From a virus, in the IMG/VR virus record IMGVR_UViG_3300039309_000221, positions 1 through 52,776 of that record: a stretch of DNA of 52,776 nucleotides; one strand, 5' to 3'. Position 1 is the stretch's first letter; each line of letters opens with the position of its first letter. Of this stretch, positions 944 through 47,485 are shown piece after piece. The notes beneath the pieces are model-generated. The model was not told the origin of the DNA and searched no databases. It worked only from the letters and a program-made list of their open reading frames with translations. A program made the translations under genes and the position numbers.

Positions 944-981
944 ATATATGAATAGAAATAAAAGATATATTAGAAGATAAC

Positions 982-1270
982 AGCCACAATTGTCAATAAC
1001 CATCATATATTATGGTGGCTTGTGCGAAGAAATCTAACCAGTTTCTTTTGATCAAGACTAAAATATTGTACTAGACAAGAGTAAAATCAATAAGCAGATC
1101 AGGACCGTATATCTTTTCATCAAAAGAGAAATCTGCGAGACGGAAAAGAAATGGTGAATGTGCTAGCATAAAGCACAGCGGCTTAAAAGGTATATAGAGA
1201 ATGTTTCGCTAGTTTTCTTTCCCTACGATCTGCCTATGTCGAAGCGAGTTGGATAAAGTGCTTACGCACA
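982..1270 (+). ncRNA. Candidate omega-RNA (guide-scaffold RNA) of the IsrB-like nuclease
   Basis: The 944-1296 stretch has no credible gene but is rich in pairing. AGCCAC (982-987) pairs with GTGGCT (1015-1020), with an alternative hairpin CCATCATA/TATGGTGG nested inside. GTGCT/AGCAC forms a hairpin at 1160-1176. GCAGATC (1094-1100) can pair with GATCTGC (1227-1233) over long range. GTGC/GCAC (1258-1269) is followed by a T run, giving a terminator-like 3' end just before the nuclease ATG. Established knowledge: IscB/IsrB proteins use an RNA encoded directly upstream, roughly 200-300 nt long, with the guide at its 5' end. The guide would then correspond to bases near 960-981. The position, strand and length fit; no covariance model was run. 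Confidence 0.6.
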
Positions 1271-1296
1271 TTTTTTAGAAGGAAATAGAAAATAAA

Positions 1297-2328
1297 ATGT
1301 CAGTTCCAGTTTTAGACAGAAATAAAATACCACTTATGCCTTGCTCTGAAAAGCGAGCTGCAAAGCTTATGGATAAGGGGCAAGCGAAGCCATATTGGCA
1401 AAAGGGTATTTTCTGCATAAAGCTGACCAAAGAGCCATCTGCAAGAAATTATCAAGAGGTAGCGTTGGGAATAGACCCAGGAAGCAAAAGAGAGGGTTAT
1501 ACAGTTGCTACTAAAAATAATGTTGTTCTTAACATAACTACAAATACGCCAGATTGGATTAAAATCCATATGGAAACAAGAAGAAATCTACGAAAAACAA
1601 GAAGATATAGGAAAACTCCATATAGAAAATGTAGATTAAATAGAAAAATAAACAAAGGATTTATTTGTCCAAGCACAAAAGCTCGTTGGTGTTCTAAATT
1701 AAGAATAATAAATCTTTTGAGAAGAATATTGCCTATCTCTTTAATAAATGTAGAAGATATAAAGGCGGAGAAAAAAGAAGGTAAAAGCAGATGGAATAGA
1801 AGTTTTTCTGGATTAGAAACTGGTAAAAATTGGTTCTATAAAGAAATAGTAAAATTAAATATTAAACTTATTTTGACAAAAGGAACAGATACGGCAGAGC
1901 ATAGAAAACAAAGAGGTTTTAAGAAATCAAAAAAGAAATTAGATTATATTTGGGAAACTCATAATGTTGATAGTCATTCATTAGCAGAAATAGTTTTAGA
2001 AAAAGAGATAAAACCTTATACTGGAATGTATAGAATAGATTTTCTTCGATATCGTAGGAGACAGTTGCATGTTCAAAACCCTATAAAAAATGGAAAGAGA
2101 AGACAATATGGTGGAACAGTTTCATTAGGACTATCAAGAGGAAGTGTTTTGCGTTATATAGGTAATAATAAAAGTTGGAAAAATAAAATCTATTATTTAA
2201 GCGGAACAAGTAATGGACAATTAACTATCTTAGATCTAAAAGATGATAGAAAAGTTTCTCATTGTATAAAAATAATAGATATAAATATATTATATATTAG
2301 TAAATATAAGGTATTATTTTGTAAATAA
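1297..2328 (+). CDS. isrB: IsrB-like RNA-guided nuclease (PLMP + RuvC, no HNH)
   Basis: A 343-residue protein. It opens with the IscB-family PLMP domain (I-P-L-M-P at 11-15, then S-x-K-R-A-A-K-L-M-D-K-G-Q-A). The RuvC-I motif is A-L-G-I-D-P-G-S-K with D60, and an arginine-rich bridge helix (RRNLRKTRRYRKTPYRKCR) runs from 95. RuvC-II follows with E153 (N-V-E-D-I) and RuvC-III with D225 (H-N-V-D-S-H). The C-terminal part has R-R-R-Q-L and Y-G-G-T as in the target-adjacent-motif-interacting region. RuvC-II and RuvC-III are only about 70 residues apart, so there is no HNH insertion. That, plus a length near 350, separates IsrB from IscB. Family knowledge: IsrB nicks DNA under guidance of an upstream omega-RNA. 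All three RuvC acids are present. AAGGA (about 1280) precedes the ATG. No tnpA transposase is seen nearby. Confidence 0.88.
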   Translation: MSVPVLDRNKIPLMPCSEKRAAKLMDKGQAKPYWQKGIFCIKLTKEPSARNYQEVALGIDPGSKREGYTVATKNNVVLNITTNTPDWIKIHMETRRNLRKTRRYRKTPYRKCRLNRKINKGFICPSTKARWCSKLRIINLLRRILPISLINVEDIKAEKKEGKSRWNRSFSGLETGKNWFYKEIVKLNIKLILTKGTDTAEHRKQRGFKKSKKKLDYIWETHNVDSHSLAEIVLEKEIKPYTGMYRIDFLRYRRRQLHVQNPIKNGKRRQYGGTVSLGLSRGSVLRYIGNNKSWKNKIYYLSGTSNGQLTILDLKDDRKVSHCIKIIDINILYISKYKVLFCK

Positions 2329-2357
2329 TAAAATTATTAAAAAATGGAATATAATTT

Positions 2358-3059
2358 ATGAGCTATAAAGCTACGATTTTGTGTATTGATCCTCCTTATC
2401 TTTTCAAGGATCCACTTACGATGAGCGAAACTCCTCGTGGAGCGATGTCGAATTATCCTCCTCTAACAATAGAAGAGCTAAAAAAACTACCAATAGCAGA
2501 TATTGCAGACCCATCGGGAGCACTCCTTGCGTTATGGTGTCCCTCATCGCTTATCCAAAGCGGGCTTGATTTAATGAAAGTGTGGAACTTTGATTTTAAG
2601 CAGACTTGGATATGGGTAAAAATTAAAAAGAACATAAATATGAATGGCGATATAAATGATGTTTTAAGTATGTATATGGGTCATACTTTTAGACAATGCC
2701 ACGAAATATGTTTATTGGGCATCAATAATACAAAAGTATATAAGAAGCGTATAAATAAAGCTCAAAGATCGGTTTCATTTGCTGCAAATGCAAGACATTC
2801 AGAAAAGCCAGAAGAATTGCAAAACAGATTAGATATTATGTTCGGAAATAATGTTAATAAAATTGAATTATTTGCTCGTAGGCAGAGAAAAGGGACTATA
2901 TGTATTGGCAATGAGGCTCCTATGACATTTAATGAAGATATTAGATTATCTCTTTCCAAATTAATGGATTTATCAGATGATAAAATATCTTTAATAAAAG
3001 AAACTATTAATTTAGATAAGATTGATAATGAAAAATTAGTTTCTATTTGGAATGATTAG
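2358..3059 (+). CDS. MT-A70 family adenine-N6 DNA methyltransferase
   Basis: A 233-residue protein with the catalytic D-P-P-Y at 11-14 close to the N-terminus, then Y-P-P-L-T-I-E-E-L-K-K-L-P and A-L-L-A-L-W-C-P. Next come W-I-W-V-K, the F-R-Q-C-H-E-I-C-L-L-G segment and the A-R-H-S-E-K-P-E motif. The fold order and the ending F-A-R-R are typical of MT-A70 enzymes, which transfer a methyl group from S-adenosylmethionine to N6 of adenine. No partner restriction enzyme is obvious, although an HNH endonuclease gene follows. Possible roles are self-protection of phage DNA or expression control. It starts 29 bases after the IsrB-like gene, so the two may share a transcript. Confidence 0.85.
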   Translation: MSYKATILCIDPPYLFKDPLTMSETPRGAMSNYPPLTIEELKKLPIADIADPSGALLALWCPSSLIQSGLDLMKVWNFDFKQTWIWVKIKKNINMNGDINDVLSMYMGHTFRQCHEICLLGINNTKVYKKRINKAQRSVSFAANARHSEKPEELQNRLDIMFGNNVNKIELFARRQRKGTICIGNEAPMTFNEDIRLSLSKLMDLSDDKISLIKETINLDKIDNEKLVSIWND

Positions 3060-3109
3060 ATAATCTATTTCGTGAGCAGTAAATTACCGCTTTTAAGCGG
3101 TGGCAATTG

Positions 3110-3652
3110 ATGAGGAATATGGTTGAGAAAAAAGTTCTTTTGTTAAATGAAACCTACGAAACTCTCTCTTTTATTAACGAGCGGCGGGCATTAAAATTAT
3201 TGTTTAAGGGCAAGGTTGATGTTTTGTCCGTTTGGAATGATGATGTTTTTCTTATCTCTGGCAAAATAAAGTTGCCAGCAATATTGAGATTGAGAAAGAG
3301 AGTTCGCAGAAATTATATTGCTAACAATGGATTTAGTCGCACCGCACTTATCCGCCGAGATGATAATTGTTGTCAATATTGTCAAAAGAGACTGACGCCT
3401 AATCAGCTCACCATAGATCATATTATTCCAAAACAGAGAGGTGGGCAGACAAGTTTTACTAATTGTGTCGTTTGTTGCAAGAAATGTAATTCAGAAAAGG
3501 GTAATAAAACACCAGAAGAAGTTGAAATGAAATTAATAAGGAAACCAGTAGCACCAACATTTTCTTCGTATTATTTTGTTTCTTGTGAGCAAGAGTTTTG
3601 GCATCCAGATTGGAACGATTATCTCGGATTAAATATCAATAAGAAAGTATAA
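3110..3652 (+). CDS. HNH endonuclease (McrA/phage type)
   Basis: A 180-residue protein with the N-terminal V-L-L-L-N-E-T-Y-E-T-L-S and R-R-A-L-K-L-L-F-K-G-K pattern of a widespread phage and bacterial HNH family. The HNH core follows: C88-x2-C91, the D103-H104 pair in T-I-D-H-I-I-P, N118, then C123-x2-C126. The two cysteine pairs bind zinc and the D-H-N residues form the metal-dependent nuclease site. ATG 3110 is preferred; TTG 3107 and ATG 3119 are in-frame alternatives. A small CCGCTT/AAGCGG hairpin (3088-3100) lies just upstream. The role is uncertain: free-standing mobile endonuclease, or a restriction or packaging function. Confidence 0.82.
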   Translation: MRNMVEKKVLLLNETYETLSFINERRALKLLFKGKVDVLSVWNDDVFLISGKIKLPAILRLRKRVRRNYIANNGFSRTALIRRDDNCCQYCQKRLTPNQLTIDHIIPKQRGGQTSFTNCVVCCKKCNSEKGNKTPEEVEMKLIRKPVAPTFSSYYFVSCEQEFWHPDWNDYLGLNINKKV

Positions 3653-4663: not shown

Positions 4664-5197
4664 ATGATCATTAAAAATAATGAAGAGGCATTGAGAATTA
4701 AATGTTCAGATGCAAATGAAGAAGAAGCAAAAGATATAATTCAAGCATTAGAAAAAGAGCTACAATATTCAGCATTAGCTGGACAAGAGGGTATTGGATT
4801 AGCTGCCGTGCAGATAGGTATTCCTAAAAATATTGCTATTGTTCGTATGGCGGATGCGAATATTAATTTGGTTAATTGCGGAATAGAAAAGATGTATGAT
4901 CCAGCAATGTTTCGTCAAGAAGGATGTCTATCATTCCCAAATCGATATGAGACAACGACACGACATCAAGAGATTGTTATCTCTAATAATTCGGTTTATC
5001 CAGAAAGTTTTATAGCATCGGGTCTTATCGCAGTTTGTTGTCAGCACGAGATCGATCATTTTAGCGGAAAGTTATTTATTGATCACACAATGAAACAGGT
5101 TAAAAGAAAAGTAGGACCTAATGACCCGTGCCCCTGCGGAGCAATAAATATTAATACGGGAGGAATAAAAAAGTTTAAGAAATGCTGCGGAGCCTGA
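4664..5197 (+). CDS. def: Peptide deformylase with C-terminal SEC-C zinc motif
   Basis: A 177-residue protein with all three deformylase motifs: G-I-G-L-A-A-V-Q at 43-50, E-G-C-L-S at 86-90 and H-E-I-D-H at 128-132. C88, H128 and H132 bind the metal and E129 is catalytic. The enzyme removes the N-formyl group from nascent proteins at the ribosome exit. After residue 150 comes G-P-N-D-P-C-P-C-G ... K-K-F-K-K-C-C-G, a SEC-C motif as at the end of SecA, where it binds zinc. Phage deformylases are known, but fusion to SEC-C is unusual. The second half of the motif carries an insertion compared with the typical compact form. A trigger-factor gene in the same window suggests a shared place of action. 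Confidence 0.92.
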   Translation: MIIKNNEEALRIKCSDANEEEAKDIIQALEKELQYSALAGQEGIGLAAVQIGIPKNIAIVRMADANINLVNCGIEKMYDPAMFRQEGCLSFPNRYETTTRHQEIVISNNSVYPESFIASGLIAVCCQHEIDHFSGKLFIDHTMKQVKRKVGPNDPCPCGAININTGGIKKFKKCCGA

Positions 5198-15970: not shown

Positions 15971-17221
15971 ATGTCAGATATAAAAGTTCAAGAGGTAGAA
16001 TACTGCAAGATTAATGTTTATTATGTTGCTGATGCTGATGAGATAGAGCGAAAGCAGGATCAGGTTCTTCAAGCTTTTAAGGACGCGCCAGTCCCTGGTT
16101 TTCGCAAGGGAAAGCAGACGATTAATGCAATAAAGATGCATTATCGCGACCAAATAAAAGAGGCTATGAAGCGCGCGTTGACAGAGAGTGCTTTTCATAA
16201 TACATTATTTGAGAAGGGTTATCGTCCATATGGAGAGCCTTATATTGGTTCTATGTTTTTTGAGCGTGGAGAGTTTAATTGTGATTTTATCATTCATATA
16301 AAACCAGATTTTGAGATTGCATCATATAAGGGATTAAATATTCCTAAACCTCATTCAGCAATGACGATAACAGATATATCTGCCGAAATAATGCAGCAGT
16401 TGCGAATTAAGTTCGGAGAGACAATACCATATGAAGATAATGATTTTGTTCAGGTTGGCGATAATATAATTATTGATTTTGATGGATCTATTAATGGACA
16501 AAATGTTCCCGCTTTATCAAAGCAAGGTGCAGTTATGGAAGTTGGCACATCAAAGTTGCCAGGGTTTGATGATATGTTGCTCGGAATGAAGCAAGAAGAG
16601 GAGAGAAAGTTTTCTCTCGTTGTTCCAGAGGGTAGTTTGCCGAGCTTAGTTGGGCAGACAATAGATTTTACGGTTAAATTATCGGCGGGGACTAAATCAA
16701 TACCTCACGCATTGAATGATGAGTTAGCTATTAAAATGGGCAAGGAAAGTTTTATTGAATTGCAGACTGATGTTGATGGAGCAGCGGCTAATAAGTATTC
16801 AATGGTATGTCGCCAAGCGATAATAGATATGGTTCAGAAAAAATTGATTATTGATAATCAATTTAAGGTTCCAGCTTTTATGACAGAGGCGGAAGGAAGA
16901 ATGCTTATCGAGAAAGCAAATCTAAAATGGGACGAAGTTGCACAAGTAGATAAGGATAAGTATTTAGAATTAGCGGAGGATAATGTTAAGTTGGCATTAA
17001 TTCTGGATAGAATTGCTGAAAATGATCCAGAGGCACAGCTGACTGATAATGAAACATTTTCGATAATAAAGGATCATTTAGCGAAGAAATACGGAGAGAG
17101 TAATGTTGACAACATATTGAAGGAAATGGTCAAAAATGGAAGTTTGCAGATGATGGCGGCACAGGTCAAAAATCAGTTTGTCCTCGATTTTATATGTAAG
17201 AATGTTAACATAATTGAATAA
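15971..17221 (+). CDS. tig: Trigger factor (ribosome-associated chaperone/PPIase)
   Basis: A 416-residue protein, close to the bacterial length of about 430. The ribosome-docking signature G-F-R-K-G-K lies at 43-48 after P-V-P. An FKBP-type peptidyl-prolyl isomerase domain follows at about 150-245 (D-N-I-I-I-D-F-D-G, G-F-D-D-M-L-L-G-M, and F-T-V-K-L), then a helical C-terminal substrate-binding region. Trigger factor docks at the ribosome exit and shields nascent chains. It is rare in phages. A complete copy with the docking loop intact suggests it acts on the host ribosome, alongside the phage deformylase, to fold abundant virion proteins. AAGGAAAAGG upstream is a good ribosome site. Confidence 0.92.
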   Translation: MSDIKVQEVEYCKINVYYVADADEIERKQDQVLQAFKDAPVPGFRKGKQTINAIKMHYRDQIKEAMKRALTESAFHNTLFEKGYRPYGEPYIGSMFFERGEFNCDFIIHIKPDFEIASYKGLNIPKPHSAMTITDISAEIMQQLRIKFGETIPYEDNDFVQVGDNIIIDFDGSINGQNVPALSKQGAVMEVGTSKLPGFDDMLLGMKQEEERKFSLVVPEGSLPSLVGQTIDFTVKLSAGTKSIPHALNDELAIKMGKESFIELQTDVDGAAANKYSMVCRQAIIDMVQKKLIIDNQFKVPAFMTEAEGRMLIEKANLKWDEVAQVDKDKYLELAEDNVKLALILDRIAENDPEAQLTDNETFSIIKDHLAKKYGESNVDNILKEMVKNGSLQMMAAQVKNQFVLDFICKNVNIIE

Positions 17222-44059: not shown

Positions 44060-44965
44060 ATGTCATTAGAGAAAACAGCCCAAGAATTATTTATCGTTGA
44101 TCAAGGACCTTCGATTTATTCCGAAGAGCCTCATATGGAGCAACCTATTGAGGTTTCTATGGATGAAGCGGAGCCGGTTGAAGTTTCTAATGCACCAATA
44201 GAGGTTTCTGATAATGGAGAAAGTGATATTGTTATCTCTCTCTCCGATATTCCGGGAGCACCGCCAGGGACACCAGATCCAGAACCTGAATTAGAGGTTT
44301 CGGAAGAAGTAAAAGAAGAAAAGAAAGATGATGAGAATGATGCAAAGTCAAAAAAGAATGAAAAATGGGATTGGGCAAAACGAGGACCGACAGGATTTGT
44401 TGTCTGGATAAAAGAAAGATTTGATGATGTTCCAAAGCACTCTGGATTTGATAGTGCGGGCGTTGAACGAGCTGCTTCATATCTCGAAAGATTAGATAAT
44501 GAAATATCAAAAGCAATGAGATTAGATTTAGATGGTGAGCTGGACGCAGATAAGATAGAAGAGATTAGATCAAAGATAGAGGATGGAATAAATAGACTTC
44601 ACGATCGATTAACAAAAATAAAGAAATCAAAGAAACCTGCTAAAAAGAGAGCTGACTATATACAAGAAGGTATTGTTAAAGAGGCACAGAAGATAACTGG
44701 TGTCCAAGGTATTTTTGTCACCGTTGATCTATTTATATCAGCGATTGGTCGTGCAATGATTAATGGAATGGTATCATCTGGGAAAGATATTGAGTCACTT
44801 TTTTCGGCAGCGTGCGATAAATACAAATTAGATGATAGAGAGAAATTATCATTAACTCAATTTCTTTTTGATCTTGGTTATCCAATGATGCTTGATCGTG
44901 GAAATGTCCTTGATGAAGATTTTAATTGGGATAAATCCGAATGGATACAACAATTTAAGAGCTAA
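44060..44965 (+). CDS. Unknown 301-aa acidic protein
   Basis: The first 110 residues are a strongly acidic low-complexity stretch (E-P-V-E-V-S, P-E-P-E-L-E-V-S-E-E). A basic helical coiled-coil region (D-R-L-T-K-I-K-K-S-K-K-P-A-K-K-R) and a compact C-terminal domain (T-V-D-L-F-I-S-A-I-G-R-A-M-I-N-G) follow. A GAGGAA ribosome site precedes the ATG. No family is recognised. Position just upstream of terminase suggests an assembly function. Confidence 0.55.
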   Translation: MSLEKTAQELFIVDQGPSIYSEEPHMEQPIEVSMDEAEPVEVSNAPIEVSDNGESDIVISLSDIPGAPPGTPDPEPELEVSEEVKEEKKDDENDAKSKKNEKWDWAKRGPTGFVVWIKERFDDVPKHSGFDSAGVERAASYLERLDNEISKAMRLDLDGELDADKIEEIRSKIEDGINRLHDRLTKIKKSKKPAKKRADYIQEGIVKEAQKITGVQGIFVTVDLFISAIGRAMINGMVSSGKDIESLFSAACDKYKLDDREKLSLTQFLFDLGYPMMLDRGNVLDEDFNWDKSEWIQQFKS

Positions 44966-44969
44966 ATCT

Positions 44970-45596
44970 ATGAAAATATCAAAAAACTCAGAAAATATTG
45001 ATGACATTTGGGCAAAACGCTTTCAACAATCGCTTGAAAAATCTGCCGTTCAATCGAGAGAGGTCGACCGAAATCTTTTTGATCAGATTAATAGTGTTCT
45101 CGGCAATAAGTCAAAGTATCCATCAGTTCAAGCTGCGGTTGATGATATGAAAAATAGAAGTGGATTGACCGCATATCTTAACAAGAAGATGTCGGATGAA
45201 AAGGAAGAGAAGGTAGTGAAAAAGACCGCCGCGCCGTCAGCCGATGGGAACTCGGTTATCGATAAAAAAGTTGATGTCACCCCGATAGTTTTTAAAAAAC
45301 ATCCACAGATAGAAGAAACAATTCGTAATCATATAAAGAGTACGAGAGGTAATAATTCTATTCCTGCCATTATATTAAAAGTGAAGACAATACACGGAAA
45401 TGATGTTTCTGATGCGAGTGATTGGGAAGATGATAATTTGGTGAGATATGTAAGCCACGCTAATTTGGTTGAGAAATCTAATCATTGCCACGATAATGAG
45501 TTTCAAGGATTAGGAATTGTTGAAAATGTTTCCTCTGATAATGCCGATCCAGCAAATACCGATGCGTTTCATATTCTAATGCCCGCGAAGATATAA
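44970..45596 (+). CDS. Unknown 208-aa protein
   Basis: ATG 44970 lies just after the preceding stop. An earlier ATG at 44892 would overlap that gene and is less likely. Helical, with a Lys/Asp-rich central part, ending in compact D-A-F-H-I-L-M-P-A-K-I. It holds no known motif. The gene ends 5 bases before terminase, so it may be a packaging partner or terminase-associated factor. Confidence 0.55.
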   Translation: MKISKNSENIDDIWAKRFQQSLEKSAVQSREVDRNLFDQINSVLGNKSKYPSVQAAVDDMKNRSGLTAYLNKKMSDEKEEKVVKKTAAPSADGNSVIDKKVDVTPIVFKKHPQIEETIRNHIKSTRGNNSIPAIILKVKTIHGNDVSDASDWEDDNLVRYVSHANLVEKSNHCHDNEFQGLGIVENVSSDNADPANTDAFHILMPAKI

Positions 45597-45601
45597 TCTA
45601 T

Positions 45602-47485
45602 ATGCCGCAAGAAAAAGTTGAAAAAATTGACTTATTTGAGAAATTAAAAGCAGATCTGCTTAAAATAGATCCTTGTGCTTGGTGCGAAACCAATTTAACG
45701 CTTGAAGGTGAACCCTTTCGTCTTCATGGAAATGGTTATCGCCCATTAATGGATATATACAGATACATAGGCATAAAAGCATTAGAACCAAATGCGAAAC
45801 CAGTAATATGGGTCAAAGGACGACAGGTTGGAGCAACTATTTGTGCTTGTGCGTTAGAAATGTATTTTATGGGGAGCGGACTTTTCGGCAACAAAGATAA
45901 GCCACCTATTCGTGTTCTTCATGCTTTTCCGCAGCTCGATCACGCAGCGGCATATTCGAAAACAAAGCTTAATCAAATGATAACAATGTCTCGCCAGGTT
46001 GATAATCCTGACGCAAAAAAAGGATCAAAACAAAAATCGCTAATGCAGTCATTAATTGACCAATCATCGTCAACTAATGATTCATTAACCTTTAAACAGT
46101 TTCAGGGCGGAAATCATTTATGGGTTGAGAGTACAGGAATCGATTCTGACCGCATAATGGGGCGTTCCTGCGACATTATGCTTTTTGATGAAATTCAGAA
46201 AATTCCCGGACTTGCCATAGGAAATGCATTAAAAATATTAACAGCATCTAAGTATGGCAAGCCATCAAAAGGGGTTCAGTTTTATTTTGGAACCCCCCGT
46301 CGCAAGGGATCAGATTATCATAAAATGTGGCAATCGAGCACACAGCAATATTATCATCTTGGTTGCGAAAAATGTCATCAATATTTTCCATTATATACAC
46401 CAGGGTCGGATAGCTGGAAAAAGATTTGGCTACATGGGTATATTGTTCAGTGCCCTCATTGCGGACAAGAACAAGATAAAAGGGATGCTGCGGAAAGAGG
46501 AAAGTGGTTTGCATTAAGAGATGAAAATGACCCAGAGTGCAGAATGATTGGTTTTCATCTTAACCAGTTATATATGCCACGGTTCCAAAAAGAAGATATA
46601 CTTGGTGAGGAACCAGGGGTTCATCCAATTAATACAGAGAGAGTTTTTCATAATGAGGTGCTTGGTGAATTTTATCAGGGTGATGCATCGCCAATAACGC
46701 CAGAAGAAATACGAGAAATGTGCGGAGAGCCCGAGAGAAGATTTGTATCACGAATAGAGCCAAACAAAGATCAAATAGTTGTTATGGGAATAGATTATGG
46801 ATTAAGAGCTAATCTTGAAGAGGCGGCAAATCCTGATAAAGTTAAATCTATCGGAATATCATATAGTGTTGCTACTATTATGTTAGTCAAAGGTCCAAAA
46901 TTATTATCTATTGAGTTTGCATTGAAGTTTAAGCGAAATGATCCAGCAAGTAAAAAAGAGCTCATCGATCAGCTTATGAGGCAATATAGTGTTAATCTTT
47001 GCGTCGGTGATATCGGATATTCTAATGATTTTTCGCAAACATTGCATACAGAATATGGTGATAGATATTTAGTTTCTCGATGTGCTGGTGGCAAGCTTAA
47101 TGATTTTGTTAAGTTTAGAACTGATACTTTTCCAAAGGAAATTGTTTTTGATAGAGATCATTATATAGGCGAGTTTATAGATTTGTTAAAAGGCGGAAAT
47201 ATTAAGTTCCCATTAGGAGATTATGAAAGAATTGCGTGGCTTATAGATCATTGTTCCTCTATGGAATTAAAACCAAGCATATCAAGATTTGGCGATCCAA
47301 GTATTCATTATGTAAAAGGTGGATCAGCTAACGATGGTTTAATGAGTGCTCTAAACGCATATATAGCCTATAAGTTTATCATAACAAAGGGATTTACCAC
47401 AAATAATCCATTAGTCATCGAGCAAGGGTTTAAGAACAGAGAAAAACCTCTCGCCGTTGGTGGATATATCTCACGACGAATATAA
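45602..47485 (+). CDS. terL: Terminase large subunit (GpA-like)
   Basis: A 627-residue packaging motor. The ATPase part has a deviant Walker A, K-G-R-Q-V-G-A-T at 72-79 (K at the first position as in lambda gpA, no K before T), and Walker B I-M-L-F-D-E (D196, E197). Two zinc-like pairs follow, C-E-K-C and C-P-H-C, typical of the GpA family. The nuclease domain has G-I-D-Y-G with D398 and C-V-G-D-I-G-Y-S with D470. It cuts phage concatemers and pumps DNA into proheads together with the portal (47530). The small subunit is not certain. Confidence 0.92.
   Translation: MPQEKVEKIDLFEKLKADLLKIDPCAWCETNLTLEGEPFRLHGNGYRPLMDIYRYIGIKALEPNAKPVIWVKGRQVGATICACALEMYFMGSGLFGNKDKPPIRVLHAFPQLDHAAAYSKTKLNQMITMSRQVDNPDAKKGSKQKSLMQSLIDQSSSTNDSLTFKQFQGGNHLWVESTGIDSDRIMGRSCDIMLFDEIQKIPGLAIGNALKILTASKYGKPSKGVQFYFGTPRRKGSDYHKMWQSSTQQYYHLGCEKCHQYFPLYTPGSDSWKKIWLHGYIVQCPHCGQEQDKRDAAERGKWFALRDENDPECRMIGFHLNQLYMPRFQKEDILGEEPGVHPINTERVFHNEVLGEFYQGDASPITPEEIREMCGEPERRFVSRIEPNKDQIVVMGIDYGLRANLEEAANPDKVKSIGISYSVATIMLVKGPKLLSIEFALKFKRNDPASKKELIDQLMRQYSVNLCVGDIGYSNDFSQTLHTEYGDRYLVSRCAGGKLNDFVKFRTDTFPKEIVFDRDHYIGEFIDLLKGGNIKFPLGDYERIAWLIDHCSSMELKPSISRFGDPSIHYVKGGSANDGLMSALNAYIAYKFIITKGFTTNNPLVIEQGFKNREKPLAVGGYISRRI

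What the first reader, a model, noticed from the sequence alone, without database searches (positions are those of the whole stretch)
944..2328. Phage-borne IsrB-like RNA-guided nuclease with an upstream omega-RNA candidate
A 343-residue protein with PLMP, bridge helix and all three RuvC acids (D60, E153, D225) but no HNH insertion is preceded by a structured 353-base gene-free region. The region ends in a hairpin plus T run just before the ATG. IsrB systems are known in IS200/605-type elements, usually bacterial. Here no transposase is seen and the gene sits in a large phage, where it might target competing phages, host plasmids or its own insertion site. The presumed guide would be near 960-981.
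Basis: partly seen in the sequence, partly recalled or inferred. Interest (0 to 1): 0.88.

Follow-up and report, generated by a model that had tools for sequence, protein, structure and literature searches.

The report
Phage IsrB transposon with guide RNA
A large-phage genome fragment carries a small mobile element that encodes an RNA-guided DNA-nicking enzyme (IsrB) and the guide-RNA scaffold that aims it, most likely at its own empty insertion site; this is a known kind of system in a little-described phage branch.

Summary
Observation confirmed and sharpened. The 343-aa ORF (1297-2328) is a true IsrB: DtIsrB (8dmb) is the best sequence match (E 2e-40) and best fold match (TM 0.82/0.85); D60, E153 and D225 are invariant and no HNH is inserted. 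The upstream RNA is an omega-RNA: a covariance model built from 40 other IsrB loci, with the window and its relatives excluded, finds it (1172-1252, 35 bits, E 3.5e-6), and its nexus pseudoknot covaries. Comparison with phage relatives gives the ends: a tnpA-less IS200/605-type element at 992-2357, inserted before ATGA, the start codon of an MT-A70 methyltransferase gene. ATGA fits the published IsrB TAM (NTGA). The guide is therefore about 972-991, not 960-981. A related 327-kb phage carries five IsrB elements, three omega-RNA-only elements, about four mini-elements and one Y1 transposase gene. Most likely function: RNA-guided nicking of the empty site to retain or re-copy the element (inferred). 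Caveats: no empty site or target was found for this copy, and two residues aligned with DtIsrB's TAM readers differ (K319, H322). Viral IsrB is already known (K2IsrB). New member of a known kind, with notable phage biology.

The parts
972..991 (+). presumed guide (AGAAGATAACAGCCACAATT): flank immediately 5' of the element
   Evidence: unrelated among copies up to the sharp boundary at 992; DtIsrB omega-RNA has a 20-nt 5' guide (PMC9581776)
992..2357 (+). whole IS200/605-type element without tnpA
   Evidence: left boundary from nucleotide comparison with 7 phage copies; right end from the conserved ATGA junction and 29-base spacing
992..1276 (+). omega-RNA scaffold
   Evidence: alignment A2 with 10 phage copies; independent covariance model hit at 1172-1252
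992..1076 (+). guide-adaptor region: S1 GTC 992-994 / GAC 1074-1076; SL1 (transposon-end hairpin) 1000-1018; SL2 1019-1056
   Evidence: consensus fold of A2; named by analogy with DtIsrB
1094..1233 (+). proposed S2 stem GCAGATC 1094-1100 / GATCTGC 1227-1233; the covariance model pairs the 3' strand with a stretch near 1177 instead
   Evidence: sequence reading; same stem as in L002 and L009
1196..1218 (+). SL4, whose loop carries the 5' half of the nexus pseudoknot (TTCGCT 1205-1210)
   Evidence: structure counted on A3
1243..1248 (+). 3' half of the nexus pseudoknot (AGCGAG), pairs with 1205-1210
   Evidence: 6 of 6 pairs in the window; pseudoknot covaries in relatives
1256..1276 (+). 3' stem-loop plus T run, before the Shine-Dalgarno-like AGAAGGAAA
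   Evidence: sequence; DtIsrB's terminal hairpin lies at the Shine-Dalgarno sequence
1297..2328 (+). isrB, 343 aa: PLMP, RuvC (D60, E153, D225), bridge helix 87-103, TAM-interacting domain, final strand 337-342
2329..2357 (+). right end of the element; an AT-only palindrome AATAATAAAATTATT spans 2324-2338
   Evidence: same place as the GC-rich right-end hairpin of relatives
2358..2361 (+). ATGA: presumed TAM and insertion target, also start codon of the MT-A70 gene
   Evidence: all compared copies abut ATGA; DtIsrB cuts at ATGA
2358..3059 (+). MT-A70 methyltransferase gene downstream of the element, not part of it
   Evidence: Pfam MT-A70 E 3e-26

Best explanation
It is a tnpA-less IS200/605-type transposon (992-2357) in a large-phage genome, encoding the RNA-guided nickase IsrB and its omega-RNA. 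The transcript starts in the flank, so the 20 bases of phage DNA next to the insertion become the guide. That guide followed by ATGA is the sequence of the same site without the element. [quoted passage not shown] A Y1 transposase supplied in trans by another element would move it to new ATGA sites. Shown: protein family, fold, omega-RNA, element ends and ATGA junction. Inferred: transcription, nicking, recombination and trans-mobilisation.
For: Protein; AlphaFold pLDDT 88, pTM 0.85, best PDB match DtIsrB TM 0.82/0.85. RNA: a model from 40 outside loci hits the window at E 3.5e-6, its only hit in 52.8 kb; covariation including the pseudoknot. Ends and junctions. Mobility: five IsrB copies, three omega-RNA-only copies (88-91% alike) and mini-elements, with different flanks, in one 327-kb phage that also has one Y1_Tnp gene. 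Joining the flanks of one copy continues the reading frame of the gene upstream. Published DtIsrB activity and TAM (PMC9581776); donor-joint homing model for TnpB (PMC8612924).
Against: No empty site or target for the window's guide was found: 0 exact matches in IMG/VR and none in held loci. K319 and H322 stand where relatives have R and mostly Q, aligned by motif and spacing with DtIsrB R323 and Q326, whose alanine mutants are inactive. The right-end palindrome is AT-only and could be chance. No Y1 transposase in this 52.8-kb fragment. No expression data.
Confidence: 0.65

Rival explanations
1. A decaying copy: once mobile, now with altered TAM-reading residues and a worn right end, and no longer active.
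For: K319/H322 where relatives have R and mostly Q; three in-frame stops in the 11 codons after residue 343 where the nearest relatives still code; AT-only right-end palindrome.
Against: Intact 343-codon ORF with all catalytic acids and a confident full fold including the last strand despite a long branch (0.65 changes per site). Many IsrBs end at the same place and lie 27-32 bases before the next start codon. Both pseudoknot halves are intact.
Confidence: 0.2
2. A phage weapon: IsrB kept to cut competing phages, plasmids or host DNA that match a fixed guide.
For: Phage-borne and in an all-virus clade of 8 rows, 100/99 support; omega-RNA-only elements may give a related phage several guides.
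Against: The guide is simply the flank of the insertion and differs between insertions; no foreign target in IMG/VR or held loci; sharp transposon ends.
Confidence: 0.08
3. A nuclease-dead RNA-guided regulator of the downstream methyltransferase gene, comparable in kind to phage TldR.
For: The element sits directly before a start codon; phage RNA-guided regulators exist (abstract of PMC13418256).
Against: All three RuvC acids are kept; insertion at start codons is shared by copies before unrelated genes.
Confidence: 0.04

Closest known systems
IsrB of Desulfovirgula thermocuniculi (DtIsrB, PDB 8dmb)
   Same: domain order, catalytic acids, no HNH, about 350 aa, omega-RNA upstream of the gene with nexus pseudoknot, NTGA-type TAM
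   Different: about 30% identity in the fold alignment; phage host; K319/H322 at positions aligned with R323/Q326; longer stretch with extra predicted hairpins before SL4 than in most relatives
K2IsrB (viral metagenome contig, PMC9581776)
   Same: an IsrB from a viral contig, active in vitro, NTG TAM
IscB (OgeuIscB and others)
   Same: PLMP, RuvC, bridge helix, omega-RNA
   Different: IscB has an inserted HNH; the window protein does not, and scores under the IscB cut-off (114 against 175)
TnpB of ISDra2
   Same: guide taken from transposon flank; proposed donor-joint homing
   Different: Cas12-type protein, guide at the other end, double-strand cuts

Membership tests
IsrB (OMEGA nickase) | PLMP, bridge helix and split RuvC with D/E/D | tested here: met
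IsrB (OMEGA nickase) | no HNH domain, about 350 aa | tested here: met
   343 aa, RRXRR only; Foldseek best match DtIsrB
IsrB (OMEGA nickase) | omega-RNA upstream with conserved core and nexus pseudoknot | tested here: met
IsrB (OMEGA nickase) | guide at the 5' end, from the element's flank | tested here: inconclusive
   position follows from the boundary; no transcript data and no matching empty site
IsrB (OMEGA nickase) | NTG(A) TAM next to the target | tested here: inconclusive
   ATGA abuts the right end, but the presumed TAM-reading residues differ
IsrB (OMEGA nickase) | RNA-guided nicking of the non-target strand | not testable with these tools
   needs biochemistry
IS200/IS605-type element | hairpins near both ends and a short fixed target at the junction | tested here: met
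   met in relatives; the window's right-end hairpin is weak
IS200/IS605-type element | Y1 transposase tnpA | tested here: not met
   none in the window, one in the related 327-kb phage; tnpA-less members that rely on a transposase in trans are common (own knowledge)
IscB | HNH inserted in RuvC | tested here: not met
TldR-type regulator | lost RuvC catalytic residues | tested here: not met

The most novel reading that the evidence does not exclude
Large phages carry an RNA-guided nicking-homing family: several IsrB genes share a pool of trans-acting omega-RNAs on IsrB-less elements, inserted at ATGA gene junctions where element and genes share stop and start codons, and the window's IsrB has a changed TAM preference.
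Probability: 0.25. Interest if true: 0.7.

Novelty: new member of a known kind. Interest (0 to 1): 0.45.

Why it matters
IsrB is held to be the ancestor-like relative of IscB and Cas9. A phage branch with several copies, orphan guide RNAs and a readable insertion rule would be a natural setting in which to test whether RNA-guided nicking works as homing, comparable to phage nicking homing endonucleases.

Tried and rejected
Rfam search: nothing credible; the group II intron hit is far below its cut-off. Free energy alone is not significant. Empty-site search by the upstream ORF and the MTase: no informative relatives. Guide search in held loci and IMG/VR: nothing. Flank genes of other copies: rIIA relatives keep an ATGAA start without the element, and rIIB relatives give only weak support for one empty joint; no clean empty allele. 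A first pseudoknot count used a wrong motif and a later one wrong columns; both were redone. I first read the missing C-terminal tail as loss of the essential last strand; rejected because many IsrBs end there and the model has a strand at 337-342. The neighbouring HNH as a split IscB part: no support beyond a weak profile match.

Full report
Setting. The window is a 52,776-base linear IMG/VR virus record. Terminase large subunit, portal protein, endolysin, SbcC-like and DNA polymerase III alpha genes mark it as part of a phage, probably a large one. No tRNA genes and no close relative among 50,697 phage records for bases 1-25000.

Protein. ORF 1297-2328 (343 aa) matches Pfam RRXRR (E 8e-37) and, partially and under its cut-off, NCBIfam IscB. 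The best solved relative by sequence is DtIsrB, 8dmb (E 2e-40; 2e-48 with a profile). D60, E153 and D225 are invariant among 57 aligned sequences. AlphaFold gives pLDDT 88 and pTM 0.85, and Foldseek puts 8dmb first (E 1.4e-28, TM 0.82/0.85), ahead of the IscBs. There is no HNH insertion.

Relatives. IMG/VR holds about 60 loci with relatives, and GTDB genomes hold many (the 80-locus limit was reached; mostly Cyanobacteria, Chloroflexi and Poribacteria). Annotated phage records hold one (LR745208, 44%). In the tree the window lies in an all-virus clade of 8 rows with 100/99 support; sampling is uneven.

Element ends. Copies in phages were compared by nucleotide: five in one 327-kb phage, one in a 394-kb phage, one on a short contig. 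Similarity starts sharply at GTCAATAACC (window 992) and ends at an ATGA. In most close relatives the isrB stop codon is the TGA of that ATGA, so isrB and the next gene overlap by four bases. In the window isrB stops 29 bases earlier, a spacing found in many other IsrBs of phages and bacteria (27-32 bases). The element is therefore 992-2357 and abuts the ATG of an MT-A70 gene (2358). In 10 of 12 compared elements, the window included, ATGA is the start of a downstream ORF of 74 or more codons; this may reflect selection against insertion inside genes as well as target choice.

RNA. Minimum free energy alone is unremarkable (z -1.64). Alignment of the phage copies shows long invariant blocks. 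A covariance model was built from 40 other IsrB upstream regions, with the window and its clade excluded (A3). It finds the window at 1172-1252 with 35 bits, E 3.5e-6 in 120 kb, and nowhere else in the window. On A3 the structure including the nexus pseudoknot pairs in 92.7% of cells against 67.9% after shuffling, with a covariation score of 0.722 against 0.218. The window forms all six pseudoknot pairs (1205-1210 with 1243-1248). A second count over 61 loci agrees (4.72 pairs of 6 against 3.79). Where the S2 stem begins in the window is ambiguous, because the region holds extra predicted hairpins.

Guide and TAM. By the published layout (20-nt 5' guide, TAM 3' of the target; PMC9581776) the guide is 972-991 and the TAM is ATGA at 2358-2361; DtIsrB accepts ATGA. 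No match to guide plus NTGA exists in IMG/VR. One caution: where relatives have R and mostly Q in the motif GKRLxQ, the window has K319 and H322. The motif is equated with DtIsrB R323 and Q326 by spacing only. R323A and Q326A are inactive in DtIsrB, so TAM preference or activity may differ.

Mobility. The 327-kb phage also carries three omega-RNA-only elements (449-461 bases, 88-91% alike, different flanks), about four mini-elements with a single hairpin ending at ATGA and one Y1 transposase gene next to a tnpB-like frame. No Y1 gene was found in the window record, the 394-kb phage or LR745208. Reverse-complemented, the junction reads TCAT followed by a hairpin, the layout of an IS200/605 left end. 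This is compatible with mobilisation in trans, which was not tested. Joining the flanks of the copy at 110843 extends the rIIB-like frame beyond the junction, compatible with an empty site but not proof of one.

Function. Most likely RNA-guided nicking of the empty site for retention or homing, as proposed for TnpB (PMC8612924). The steps after RNA and protein identity are inference. Viral IsrB is not new: K2IsrB came from a viral metagenome contig (PMC9581776), and Borg elements carry multicopy IsrB (PMC12660748). Standalone omega-RNAs are known for IscB (PMC9581776). What seems little described, within the papers searched, is the multicopy phage family with IsrB-less omega-RNA elements and its placement at start codons.

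Noticed in passing
3079-3109: Single hairpin GTAAATTACCGCTTTTAAGCGGTGGCAATTG directly before ATGA (3110), the probable start of an HNH gene; it resembles the mini-elements of the 327-kb phage and may be a remnant of the same family.
   Followed up: partly
3110-3652: Free-standing HNH endonuclease whose HNH part matches those of Cas9d and IscB (NCBIfam), two genes from an IsrB that lacks HNH; its N-terminus weakly resembles the PLMP domain. Probably an ordinary phage HNH.
   Followed up: partly
L025-L027 (327-kb phage, record positions 73379, 75938, 99327): Three IsrB-less elements that keep the omega-RNA, both ends and a shared 3' part, each with a different guide flank: candidate trans-acting guides.
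   Followed up: partly
L024 (327-kb phage, record positions about 44900-45800, minus strand): IS605-type tnpA (Y1) gene next to a tnpB-like frame; possible source of transposase for the IsrB elements.
   Followed up: partly
15971-17221: Phage-encoded trigger factor (Pfam Trigger_N and Trigger_C).
   Followed up: no
4664-5197: Peptide deformylase gene with a cysteine-rich tail.
   Followed up: no
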